From Propionibacteriaceae bacterium (lineage in GTDB: Bacteria > Actinomycetota > Actinomycetes > Propionibacteriales > Propionibacteriaceae), in contig JAUNVL010000017.1 of the NCBI GenBank assembly GCA_030537675.1, positions 1 through 34,514 of the forward strand: a stretch of DNA of 34,514 nucleotides, in the 5' to 3' direction. The translations under genes were made by a program, and so were the position numbers. The notes beneath the pieces are model-generated. The model was not told the origin of the DNA. It saw only the letters and a program-made list of their open reading frames with translations, and did no database searches. Below are positions 9,542 through 12,329 of this stretch, in pieces. Each line of letters begins with the position of its first letter. Position 1 is the stretch's first letter.

Positions 9542-10438
9542 GTGTCAGCCCCGAGGATCACCGACGCCTCTCTCAGGACGTTCGTCCTGAGACTGGGCGA
9601 CAAGCACCCACCCATTGCACTGGGCTCCGCTGACCGGCGGATCAACGATGCCGACGCCGTGAAGCAGCGCTTCGCCGGAACCATCGACTACCTCGCGCGG
9701 GTGGAACTCGAGGTGGACCGCAACGTCCTGGAGTTGCTGACCCTGCTGCCGAGCGTCAGCGACGTGGACAGGCTCTTCTACCAGGACGTCTGGTACGACC
9801 AGGAAATGGCGCACGGGTACCTCCTGGACCAGCTCCAGGTGGATCTCGGGATGGAGCCCGCAGACCCCTTCATGACGATCCCGCTGCGCATGAAGCTGCT
9901 GGGTGCACTGGCGCACTGGGAGCCCATCCACGACATCTCGCGGATGCTGTACTACCTGACCGGTGCCTCCACGGAGCGCCAGGCCGTGGTGGCCTACAGC
10001 ATCCTGATCCGTGAGCTGAAACTGATGGGCGAGGACGCCATCGCCGAGACGATCATCCATCCCATCAAGCAGCAGGAACCCGGCCACTACACCTTCTACA
10101 AGATGTCCGCCGAGAAGATGATGCAGGACAACCAGCTGCAACCCTGGCAGTTGTTCGTGACCAGGCTGCTGAGGTCACAGGCCTTCACACTCGTGGGCGT
10201 CGACTATGTGAAGAAGTACCAGCAGGACCTGGGAGGCGTGCTCACGGAACTGGGCATGGACCTGGAGATGGAGGTCTACGCCAAGGAGATTGGACGGTTG
10301 GAGGCGAAGCTGCTCTGGGCCAAGGACAAGGGCATGGAGTTCCCGCCGTACTTCCTGGCGTCGCTGCAGGAATCGGTGGAGATGTATCGCGGACAGGGGA
10401 ACTTCGATGCGCCCGTCAACAATCGCTTCATGATCTGA
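9542..10438 (+). CDS. Ferritin-like di-iron carboxylate protein of unknown substrate
   Basis: 298 residues, mostly helical, not recognised by name. The carboxylate pattern is E55 (VELEVDRN), E88-x-x-H91 (YDQEMAHGY), E145 (STERQAVVAY) and E179-x-x-H182 (QQEPGHYTF). Each helix-pair gap is about 33-34 residues, the spacing of acyl-ACP desaturase and AurF-type di-iron oxygenases (E, then ExxH, twice). I therefore infer an oxygen-activating di-iron oxidase, desaturase or N-oxygenase-like enzyme. No redox partner or biosynthetic gene is adjacent, so the substrate is open. The GTG start is supported by the leaderless promoter pattern. The stop codon abuts the -35 of the HEAT gene promoter 1 bp downstream, so the two genes are probably transcribed separately. 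Confidence 0.85.
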   Translation: MSAPRITDASLRTFVLRLGDKHPPIALGSADRRINDADAVKQRFAGTIDYLARVELEVDRNVLELLTLLPSVSDVDRLFYQDVWYDQEMAHGYLLDQLQVDLGMEPADPFMTIPLRMKLLGALAHWEPIHDISRMLYYLTGASTERQAVVAYSILIRELKLMGEDAIAETIIHPIKQQEPGHYTFYKMSAEKMMQDNQLQPWQLFVTRLLRSQAFTLVGVDYVKKYQQDLGGVLTELGMDLEMEVYAKEIGRLEAKLLWAKDKGMEFPPYFLASLQESVEMYRGQGNFDAPVNNRFMI

Positions 10439-10439
10439 G

Positions 10440-10470
10440 TTGACCCTGACGCCACGTCAGGCCGTAGCGT
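10440..10470 (+). promoter_or_regulatory. MerR-type promoter of the HEAT-repeat gene
   Basis: TTGACC (10440-10445) and TAGCGT (10465-10470) are separated by exactly 19 bp. A perfect inverted repeat, CCTGACG-CCA-CGTCAGG (10445-10461), sits in that spacer, sharing one base with the -35. Over-long 19-bp spacers with a central dyad are the known hallmark of promoters that MerR-family activators untwist. TAGCGT ends 7 nt before the ATG at 10478, so the message would be leaderless. A MerR regulator with a related HEAT domain is encoded at 11220-12329. Confidence 0.65.
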
Positions 10471-10477
10471 CGAGTGC

Positions 10478-11236
10478 ATGAACACCACACACTCGCTCGT
10501 CACCCAGTTCGCCACGTGCATCACCCATCCGGAGCGCGACGTGCGCCTGCGCGCGGCCATGGACGCAGGCACCCTCCATGATCCGCAGGTCACCGACATC
10601 CTGGTGTCCCGGCTCGGGGTGGAGGAAGATTCCCGCGTGCGCGAAATACTGACGTGGGCACTCGTGCAGCACGGCGATGCCGCTGTACCCGCCGTGCTCG
10701 CGCTGCTGGGCTCCGAGAACCCCCTGGAACGACGCCAGGCTGCCCACGTGCTGTCCAAGATCGGTGACCCGTCCCATGTCCCGTATCTGCTGCCGGTGGT
10801 GGCGGATGAGGATGCCGACGTCGCCATCAAGGCCTACCGCGCGGCTGCGAGCACCGGGAGTCTCGAAGTGGTGCAGCCGTTGGTCGCCCGCCTCGGCGAC
10901 GGCGACGCCGGGCAGCGCGATGCGCTCAGCAACGCCATGCAGCAGTTGGGTGAGCTCGGCGTCGACGCACTGATGGCGGCCCTGAGTGACAGCGACTCCG
11001 CAGTCCGGCTCCATGCAGCGGAGGCGATCGCCCAGGTCGGGGAGGACGCCGAGCCAGCCGCTGGTGCACTGGCTATCCGCGTCGACGACGAGGATCCGGA
11101 GGTGGCACTGGCCGCCGTGATGGCGTTGGGCGCCATCGGCGGCGACGCTGCGGCGGCAGCACTGTCCGATGTCATCACGTCGGGGCGCCAGCCGCTCGCT
11201 GCGGTGGCCCGACGGCTCGTCAGCGCCGCGGCGTAG
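10478..11236 (+). CDS. Stand-alone HEAT-repeat protein, paralogous to the sensor half of the neighbouring MerR regulator
   Basis: 252 residues made almost entirely of HEAT / PBS-lyase-like repeats of about 30 residues (for example RRQAAHVLSKIGDP and VRLHAAEAIAQVGEDA), with no signal peptide, membrane segment or catalytic motif. It lines up along its length with residues about 130-369 of the MerR protein at 11220-12329: VREILTWALVQHGDAA here against VREVLTWAVARHGEAA there, and QAAHVLSKIGD against QAAHALSKVGD. HEAT arrays bind proteins, nucleic acids or bulky ligands, so a binding or sequestering role is likely. The gene has its own MerR-like promoter and overlaps the regulator gene tail to tail by 17 bp. 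A function beyond binding cannot be named. Confidence 0.88.
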   Translation: MNTTHSLVTQFATCITHPERDVRLRAAMDAGTLHDPQVTDILVSRLGVEEDSRVREILTWALVQHGDAAVPAVLALLGSENPLERRQAAHVLSKIGDPSHVPYLLPVVADEDADVAIKAYRAAASTGSLEVVQPLVARLGDGDAGQRDALSNAMQQLGELGVDALMAALSDSDSAVRLHAAEAIAQVGEDAEPAAGALAIRVDDEDPEVALAAVMALGAIGGDAAAAALSDVITSGRQPLAAVARRLVSAAA

Positions 11237-12329
11237 TACGTCCGTCGCGGATCAGCCGCGCGGCAATGTGGCGCAGGCGGTCGTCGGAGGAGCTCCTTGC
11301 TCCTTCGATGGCCGCCGTTGCTGCGTCTCCGGGCAGCTGTCCCAGGGCGACGATCGCCTCGAAACGGACGCACGAGTCCGGGTCCCGAAGCAGCGGCGCC
11401 AGAGGTGCAGCGGCGGAGGGTGCCCCGATGAGTCCGAGCGCCTCTGCGGCGCCCGCCCGGACGCGGGGTGAGACGCCGTGCAGCAGCGGGACCAGCAGGT
11501 CCACCACGCCATCACCAGCATGCTCCAGCGCGGCCACCACCGCAGCATCCACATCGTCGGGGCCCTGACCCAGTGCCGCAACCAGTGCACGCTGGGCCGC
11601 CGGACCGCCGAAGCGGCCCAGGACCTGTGCTGCCTTGGCGGCCACGACGGGGGAGTCGTCCTCCAGGAGCTGCGCCACGATGGGTACCACCGAAATGTCA
11701 CCCACCTTCGACAGGGCATGGGCCGCCTGTGCCCGCACCACGGGATCCGGGTGGGTGAGCAGAGGTACCAGCGCATCCCTCGCCGCCTCGCCGTGCCGGG
11801 CGACGGCCCAGGTCAGAACCTCACGCACTCCTGGTTCAGGGTCGCTGACCAACTGCTCCACCAAATTCTCCAGCGGCACGCCCGACGTGACATCCAGCGC
11901 AGCCCGGAACCGAACGTGTGGTTGGGGATGACGAAGACTTTGTGCCTGCGCCACCGCGGACAGCACCTCGCGCCACCCCGCCTCGGCGGGACCTCGCAGG
12001 GCGCGCAACGTGCGCAGGAGCCGTTGCTCGGCGACGATCCGCTCCTCCACCTCGGTGATGTGGTCCTCGAGTACTTCACGTGCGTCGAAATCCTTGGCAC
12101 TCAGTGCCGCGGCCACCTCATCCAGGCTCAGGCCGAGCGACTTCAGGTGCTGGATCTGCAACAGTCGCCGCAGGTCCGCGGGGGAATAGAGCCGGTAGTC
12201 GCTGGCGGAGCGGCCGCTGGCCACCAACAGCCCACGCTGGTCCCAGTGGTGCAGCGTCCGCACGGACAGGCCGGCGTGTTTCGCCACCTCACCGACGGTC
12301 AACCATGGCTCCTCGACGCCTGTCTGCAT
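11220..12329 (-). CDS. MerR-family transcriptional regulator with C-terminal HEAT-repeat domain
   Basis: 369 residues. About 10-78 is a MerR winged-helix DNA-binding domain (LTVGEVAKHAGLSVRTLHHWD, then RLYSPADLRRLLQIQHLKSLGLS). About 80-112 is the long dimerisation helix (EDHITEVEERIVAEQRLL). From about 128 to the end there are HEAT repeats paralogous to the protein encoded at 10478. MerR proteins bind a dyad between -35 and -10 and activate when the C-terminal domain senses a ligand; the HEAT region is therefore the presumed sensor. A dyad of the right kind lies at 10445-10461, upstream of the HEAT gene. I chose the ATG at 12329, just before the HTH; TACGGT ends 6 nt upstream of it, as in other leaderless genes here. 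It is convergent with the HEAT gene (17-bp overlap) and divergent from rplY. Confidence 0.92.
   Translation of the reverse strand: MQTGVEEPWLTVGEVAKHAGLSVRTLHHWDQRGLLVASGRSASDYRLYSPADLRRLLQIQHLKSLGLSLDEVAAALSAKDFDAREVLEDHITEVEERIVAEQRLLRTLRALRGPAEAGWREVLSAVAQAQSLRHPQPHVRFRAALDVTSGVPLENLVEQLVSDPEPGVREVLTWAVARHGEAARDALVPLLTHPDPVVRAQAAHALSKVGDISVVPIVAQLLEDDSPVVAAKAAQVLGRFGGPAAQRALVAALGQGPDDVDAAVVAALEHAGDGVVDLLVPLLHGVSPRVRAGAAEALGLIGAPSAAAPLAPLLRDPDSCVRFEAIVALGQLPGDAATAAIEGARSSSDDRLRHIAARLIRDGRTTPRR

What the first reader, a model, noticed from the sequence alone, without database searches (positions are those of the whole stretch)
10440..12329. A MerR regulator with a HEAT-repeat sensor, and a separate copy of the sensor under a MerR-type promoter
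Seen: the gene at 10478 encodes only HEAT repeats, and these match the C-terminal half of the convergent MerR protein segment by segment (VREILTWALVQHGDAA / VREVLTWAVARHGEAA; QAAHVLSKIGD / QAAHALSKVGD). Its promoter has the 19-bp spacer and spacer-centred dyad used by MerR activators. Known: in TipAL/TipAS, a MerR regulator induces a protein that is just its own ligand-binding domain, which sequesters the ligand. Inference: this locus repeats that logic with a HEAT-repeat sensor, the free HEAT protein acting as ligand sink, decoy or effector. I know of no described system of this kind.
Basis: partly seen in the sequence, partly recalled or inferred. Interest (0 to 1): 0.8.

Follow-up and report, generated by a model that had tools for sequence, protein, structure and literature searches.

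The report
MerR-HEAT switch with separate HEAT protein
A bacterial gene switch built from HEAT repeats appears to turn on mainly one kind of gene, a free-standing relative of its own sensor part; this two-gene unit recurs across actinobacteria and looks like an undescribed cousin of the TipA antibiotic-response system.

Summary
Window 11220-12329(-) encodes a MerR regulator with a C-terminal HEAT-repeat domain; convergent 10478-11236(+) encodes a HEAT-only protein behind a promoter with a 19-bp spacer and a perfect 7-bp dyad. In Propionibacteriaceae this operator lies before 36 of 37 free-HEAT genes examined in regulator-bearing genomes and before 0 of 13 where the regulator is absent, though this rests on only 3-4 independent events. 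Elsewhere in Actinomycetes the pair forms a tight HEAT -> MerR-HEAT operon with a related operator, 19-bp spaced in 30 of 30 loci read. Operator scans find few other sites; three additional ones in regulator-bearing genomes precede further HEAT genes, one in trans. So a regulator-operator-HEAT module is well supported. The free HEAT is not a recent sensor copy: free and regulator HEATs split 100/100, the free form carries residues the regulator lacks, and it persists without the regulator. A TipA-like ligand sink is plausible but unproven; decoy-only is disfavoured. The searches I made of an open-access library listed no such system.

The parts
10440..10470 (+). MerR-type promoter of the HEAT gene: -35 TTGACC (10440-10445), 19-bp spacer, -10 TAGCGT (10465-10470); ATG 7 nt downstream, so probably leaderless
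   Evidence: read; a 31-bp site of the same layout upstream of free HEAT scores over the 99.9th percentile of null windows in 36 of 37 regulator-bearing Propionibacteriaceae loci
10445..10461 (.). operator dyad CCTGACG-CCA-CGTCAGG
   Evidence: 7/7 complementary arms; the only zero-mismatch match to the operator pattern in the own draft genome, next best 2 mismatches
10478..11236 (+). free-standing HEAT-repeat protein, 252 aa (stop included in coordinates)
   Evidence: Pfam HEAT_2 3.1e-31, HEAT 3e-12; relatives in 32 of 147 family genomes searched at E<=1e-50, own included
11220..12329 (-). MerR-HEAT regulator, 369 aa (stop included); ATG at 12329
   Evidence: MerR_1 1.4e-18, HEAT_2 1.7e-34
12096..12299 (-). 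MerR winged-HTH part of the regulator (aa 11-78)
   Evidence: Pfam; best-scoring solved MerR chain for the profile is the TipA N-terminal domain 2vz4
11250..11942 (-). HEAT-repeat domain of the regulator (aa 130-360)
   Evidence: Pfam; profile-profile match to free HEAT over 247 columns, hhalign E=7.5e-42
11220..11236 (.). 17-bp tail-to-tail overlap of the two convergent genes
   Evidence: ORF coordinates

Best explanation
A MerR switch with essentially one kind of target. The MerR-HEAT dimer sits on the dyad in the over-long spacer of the HEAT promoter. When its HEAT domain meets a signal it distorts the DNA and turns the promoter on (MerR mechanism, known for the family, inferred here). The product is a free HEAT solenoid that binds the same ligand or client as the regulator and so buffers or neutralises it, in the manner of TipAS. 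In the operon form the regulator is co-induced, giving positive autoregulation; in the window's convergent form no operator lies before the regulator and only HEAT is induced. Supported by comparative evidence: regulator-operator-HEAT linkage, narrow regulon, old pairing. Inferred: activation, ligand identity, shared ligand, sequestration.
For: Operator 36/37 with vs 0/13 without regulator, Fisher p=4e-11, not corrected for kinship. The regulator label changes at least 3 times on supported branches (4 on the best tree) and the operator follows in 3 of 3 independent pairs. The operator pattern found three sites it was not built from in regulator-bearing genomes (G025 and G026 at 1 mismatch, G022 at 2), all before HEAT genes; in G025 no HEAT gene adjoins the regulator in the stretch read, and the target lies on another contig. 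Operon form: operator with 19-bp spacer in 30/30 loci, lowest score 35.5 against a null maximum of -7.8 over 274 windows (matrix trained on 24 of these same loci), HEAT stop to MerR start -14 to +7 nt. One operator at up to 3 mismatches in each of 15 of 16 genomes, none in the sixteenth, none with the reversed pattern. Spacers of 19-20 bp are typical of MerR promoters (PMC9909328, passages). An aligned Trp (W60 of free HEAT = W174 of regulator) in 60 of 60 domains; H90/H204 in 45 of 60, absent only from operon-type regulators. Best-scoring solved MerR chain is TipA.
Against: No ligand, expression or binding data. Residues 120-121 are Y-R or W-R in 30 of 30 free HEATs but A-F/Q or A-L/P in the 30 regulators, and H179 is in 30 of 30 free HEATs but 4 of 30 regulators, so the free form may do more than bind the same ligand. 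Operon-type regulators lack H204, and 14 of 15 lack K208. The sign test on independent events gives p=0.25, too few events. The alternative tree in which each module type duplicated its own HEAT is not rejected at 5% (p-AU 0.0755). One operator-like site at 1 mismatch (G009, a genome without MerR-HEAT) precedes a protease gene next to a TipAS-type MerR, so the motif is not exclusive to HEAT genes. Neighbouring genes give no hint of a ligand.
Confidence: 0.5

Rival explanations
1. Same regulatory link, but the free HEAT is an effector or adaptor with a different partner from the regulator's ligand (a protein client, for instance). The regulator's HEAT domain senses a related cue such as that partner's state.
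For: Free HEAT keeps signature residues most or all regulators lack and is kept without the regulator in 12 of 28 HEAT-bearing genomes checked. HEAT solenoids commonly bind proteins (general knowledge).
Against: Shared W60/W174 in all groups and H90/H204 in three of four suggest an overlapping binding face. In the loci examined, neighbours recur only among close relatives (radA in some Tessaracoccus, one synteny block in four genomes of one family), so no partner gene is evident.
Confidence: 0.25
2. Negative-feedback decoy: the free HEAT heterodimerises with, or titrates, MerR-HEAT and shuts the switch off.
For: Homologous domains, and a target promoter bearing the regulator-linked operator.
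Against: HEAT persists in 12 genomes with no MerR-HEAT found, four of them single-contig and 99-100% complete (G001, G464, G501, G515), so it seems to have a function of its own. In operon form both proteins should rise together.
Confidence: 0.17
3. Chance neighbours: two generic HEAT proteins side by side, with an unrelated promoter.
For: Raw pairwise score is comparable to that against artificial consensus HEAT proteins.
Against: Operator and regulator presence track each other; the pair recurs in two arrangements and several contexts; sites the pattern was not built from fall on HEAT genes in regulator-bearing genomes.
Confidence: 0.02

Closest known systems
TipA class (TipAL/TipAS, Mta, SkgA, AlbA)
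   Same: TipA and MtaN are the best-scoring solved MerR chains for the regulator profile; in the operon form a regulator and a sensor-like protein come from one unit headed by a MerR-type operator. TipA facts from PMC7762955, abstract and passages.
   Different: HEAT solenoid instead of the TipAS domain (PF07739 not found). The sensor-like product is a separate, diverged gene, first in the operon or convergent, not an alternative start within one gene. Ligand unknown.
BmrR / GyrI-like MerR regulators and stand-alone GyrI-like proteins
   Same: Large C-terminal effector domain on a MerR DNA-binding domain. That such an effector domain also occurs alone is recalled; a paper on a Vibrio integron drug-binding module, PMC3048380, was seen only in the listing.
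   Different: No GyrI-like domain here.
NblB / CpcE-CpcF (PBS-lyase HEAT proteins)
   Same: Same repeat type; weak NCBIfam matches of 19-48 bits.
   Different: Far below family cut-offs (300 NblB, 330 CpcE, 220 CpcF bits).

Membership tests
MerR family of regulators | N-terminal MerR winged HTH | tested here: met
   PF13411 67.1 bits vs cut-off 21.6
MerR family of regulators | operator dyad inside a 19-20-bp -35/-10 spacer | tested here: met
   window; 19-bp layout in the matrix matches (36 of 37 over threshold) and in 30/30 operon loci. Spacer rule from PMC9909328, passages
MerR family of regulators | ligand-triggered activation by DNA distortion | not testable with these tools
   needs in-vitro transcription
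TipA class | C-terminal TipAS domain PF07739 | tested here: not met
   absent from the Pfam scan at E<=1
TipA class | autoregulated unit yielding regulator and sensor-only protein | tested here: inconclusive
   gene order and operator fit in operon-type relatives; in the window only HEAT lies behind the operator; expression not measured
TipA class | second start codon inside the regulator gene | not tested
   internal starts were not examined; a separate gene supplies the HEAT-only protein
PBS-lyase / NblB HEAT proteins | score over curated family cut-off | tested here: not met
   NblB 35.5 and 47.7 bits vs 300

The most novel reading that the evidence does not exclude
A widespread actinobacterial chemical-sensing module in which a HEAT solenoid, not previously known to me as a bacterial transcription-factor sensor, is used twice: as the sensor of a TipA-like MerR activator and as the induced soluble binder. 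It would be a portable two-gene homeostasis or resistance unit, also carried on large Streptomyces plasmids.
Probability: 0.42. Interest if true: 0.85.

Novelty: new variant of a known kind. Interest (0 to 1): 0.72.

Why it matters
MerR effector domains decide what these regulators sense; the word HEAT does not occur in the text of a MerR review that I searched (PMC9909328). A conserved module with a narrow regulon and a defined operator is an easy genetic handle for finding what an orphan bacterial HEAT protein binds. The regulator was found in 67 of 394 sampled Actinomycete genomes. If the TipA analogy holds it would be a new kind of minimal binding-protein response, perhaps to natural products.

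Tried and rejected
PADLOC matches are partial HEAT or MerR matches (for example HEAT-ARM_XIII 47 bits over part of a 1972-position model, mad1 48.5 bits on the MerR part). PHROGs matched only the DNA-binding part (an unknown-function, a MerR-like and a transposase family). So no phage-defence role is claimed. One phage record had a weak match, not pursued. The ORF directly upstream (9542-10438) was considered as part of the module: by eye it also precedes HEAT in L004, L005 and L035, but its relatives in G022, G018 and G016 lie on other contigs than the HEAT gene, so I left it out. Neighbour genes as a clue to the ligand: none recurs beyond close relatives in the loci examined. A leaderless start versus a leader with a Shine-Dalgarno-like stretch varies among relatives and is not diagnostic. 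The argument that the free HEAT evolves more slowly was dropped because the two alignments hold different species sets.

Two rows of unknown status (DURG/L051 and G014/L242, contigs of equal length, probably one genome) both carry the operator; G014 has a regulator piece on another contig. G512 misses the 99.9th percentile (15.4 bits; 99th percentile 9.9) though a dyad is visible; G470 passes the matrix (28.1) but fails the stricter regular expression. For the tree test I scored G470, G512 and G014 as having the operator. G025 (regulator, HEAT in trans) and G012 (operon type) were not rows. The 13 rows without a regulator come from 12 genomes. The matrix was trained on regulator-bearing loci only, leave-one-out. 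An outgroup extraction used wrong frames and was redone, where outgroups have long branches and scatter; one search repeats the tree without them. The regular expression misses the tryptophan of 14 of 15 operon-type regulators, which the alignment shows.

Full report
What is in the window. The 369-aa product of 11220-12329(-) is a MerR-type protein: MerR_1 at residues 11-78, then HEAT repeats from about 130 to 360. The 252-aa product of 10478-11236(+) has only HEAT-type families over cut-off. The genes converge and overlap by 17 nt. They align over 204 aa at 38% identity and as profiles over 247 columns (hhalign E=7.5e-42). The HEAT gene starts 7 nt after TAGCGT, which lies 19 nt after TTGACC; a perfect 7-bp dyad spans 10445-10461. 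A MerR review gives 19-20 bp as the usual spacer of MerR-regulated promoters (PMC9909328, passages).

Is the similarity more than generic HEAT? By raw score, no: artificial consensus HEAT proteins of 200 aa or more score 68.5-166.8 bits against the free HEAT, the regulator's HEAT part 103.9. By other measures, yes. In the draft genome of 3.06 Mb, the HEAT_2 matches over cut-off lie only in these two genes. A tree of 64 HEAT domains from relatives splits 34 free from 30 regulator domains at 100/100. An aligned tryptophan (W60 = W174) is in 60 of 60 domains of four groups of 15, and a histidine (H90 = H204) in 45 of 60, all but the operon-type regulators. In eight unrelated HEAT ORFs, 21 motif-matched positions in that register held no tryptophan (a small sample, and the expression used misses 14 of the 15 operon-type regulators).

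Conservation of the pair. Of 35 same-genus relatives, 17 have a match over more than 330 of the regulator's 369 residues, and 4 more a partial, contig-cut, broken or operon-type one (my count). A named-genome scan gave 27 loci; 26 titles name Propionibacteriaceae or a genus of it (Tessaracoccus, Arachnia, Propioniciclava, Propionibacterium, Raineyella, Granulicoccus; placement of the genera partly recalled) and one says only Actinomycetes. In L040 the regulator lies beside radA (TIGR00416); L046, L047 and L049 look the same by eye. In two loci without the regulator (L057, L058) radA lies directly against the HEAT gene, as expected of a loss in place; in a third (L044) other predicted ORFs lie between.

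Operator and regulator travel together. With a leave-one-out matrix and 1441 null windows, the operator lies before the free HEAT in 36 of 37 regulator-bearing loci and before 0 of 13 HEAT genes (12 genomes) without the regulator (presence of the regulator). The weak one, G512, scores 15.4 bits. These genomes are related: the regulator label needs 4 changes on the HEAT tree (3 forced by well-supported branches), the operator follows in 3 of 3 independent pairs, and the sign test gives p=0.25 because there are so few events.

Further targets. A pattern scan of 23 genus genomes gave 19 places at 0-1 mismatch. By position, 18 lie before HEAT genes, 16 of them genes behind the pattern and two new (G025, G026). 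The other (G009, no MerR-HEAT found) precedes a DUF2268 protease gene followed by a TipAS-domain MerR. At two mismatches there are two places: the known HEAT site of G007 and a new one in G022, also before a HEAT gene. So the three new sites at up to two mismatches in regulator-bearing genomes all precede HEAT genes. In G025 that gene is on another contig from the regulator, so control would be in trans. At three mismatches there are 14 rows, 7 of them the same palindromes read backwards; the reversed-pattern control gave 14 matches over all mismatch levels, so these are background. Two of the other seven are the own promoters of GyrI-like MerR genes (the GyrI-like domain was tested for the own-genome one only).

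The operon form. A profile of regulators from other families found a match in 67 of 394 Actinomycete genomes (22 of 138 genera) at E<=1e-40, own genome included. A draw of 296 across the phylum gave 10, namely the own genome and nine of the same class that one search had already found. In the 30 best loci a free HEAT gene lies immediately upstream on the same strand, -14 to +7 nt from the regulator. All 30 have the operator TTGACC-TTGACACNGTGACAAGGTC-TTCACT or a variant with a 19-bp spacer. In 16 such genomes the pattern occurs once in 15 and not at all in one (G155, whose operator is divergent); the reversed pattern occurs in none. The regulator was also matched in 20 plasmid records: Streptomyces 16, Embleya 2, Nocardia 1, Tsukamurella 1, of which 15 cover at least 80% of it. 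In the seven annotated ones I opened, a HEAT gene precedes it and the other neighbours differ; an eighth had no annotation.

How it most likely works. The regulator holds and remodels the long-spacer promoter when its HEAT domain senses a cue (family mechanism, inferred). The output is essentially the free HEAT, and in operon form the regulator too. Shared W and H suggest an overlapping binding face. The free form's own invariant aromatic-Arg pair (120-121) and its His179, which only 4 of 30 regulators share, and its survival in 12 of 28 HEAT-bearing genomes without the regulator, say it has a job of its own. A TipAS-like binder of the same ligand fits best; an effector with a different partner is close behind; decoy-only is disfavoured.

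Compared with the known. It works like TipA in layout: narrow regulon, sensor-like product, and TipA as best-scoring solved MerR chain. It is not a TipA member: no TipAS domain, and the small protein is a separate, long-diverged paralogue. Literature: full-text searches for MerR with HEAT repeat, HEAT-repeat domain, HEAT-like or HEAT domain, and TipA with HEAT repeat listed no such system; of the 101 papers I saw 40. Subscription papers and preprints are not covered. PMC11272600 (passages and one section) describes Ccr1 (SCO1842), a Streptomyces protein some of whose homologues show slight HTH and HEAT signatures; it is not called a MerR in what I read, and I could not compare its sequence.

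Limits. No structure model could be run; there are no expression, binding or ligand data here. Absence of the regulator in draft genomes can be an assembly gap, although G001, G464, G501 and G515 are single-contig and 99-100% complete. The rival history in which each module type made its own HEAT duplicate is not rejected at 5%.

Noticed in passing
L180 (G009:C142), site 1479, genes 1517-2422 and 2432 onward: A near-identical operator with 19-bp spacer stands before a DUF2268 predicted Zn-protease gene followed by a TipAS-domain MerR: a TipA-type regulator apparently controlling a protease.
   Followed up: partly
L193 (G000:C88:335-1163): The own genome also has a MerR with a GyrI-like domain directly behind a similar dyad with a near-leaderless start, probably autoregulated; G032:C8 (L194) has a similar arrangement by eye.
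   Followed up: partly
window 9542-10438 (+): 298-aa ORF with no Pfam, NCBIfam, PHROGs or PDB match; relatives in 8 other of 37 genomes searched. It also precedes HEAT in the window's near relatives L004, L005 and L035 (by eye) but lies elsewhere in G016, G018 and G022.
   Followed up: partly
L178 (G025), L191 (G026), L192 (G022): Extra operon-type HEAT genes carrying the operator, with no MerR recognised beside them among the ORFs listed; the convergent-type regulator may have captured HEAT genes of the other lineage.
   Followed up: partly
L059 / L029 (Tessaracoccus coleopterorum): Both the HEAT gene and the regulator match in broken frames while the operator is intact; could be assembly error or decay.
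   Followed up: no
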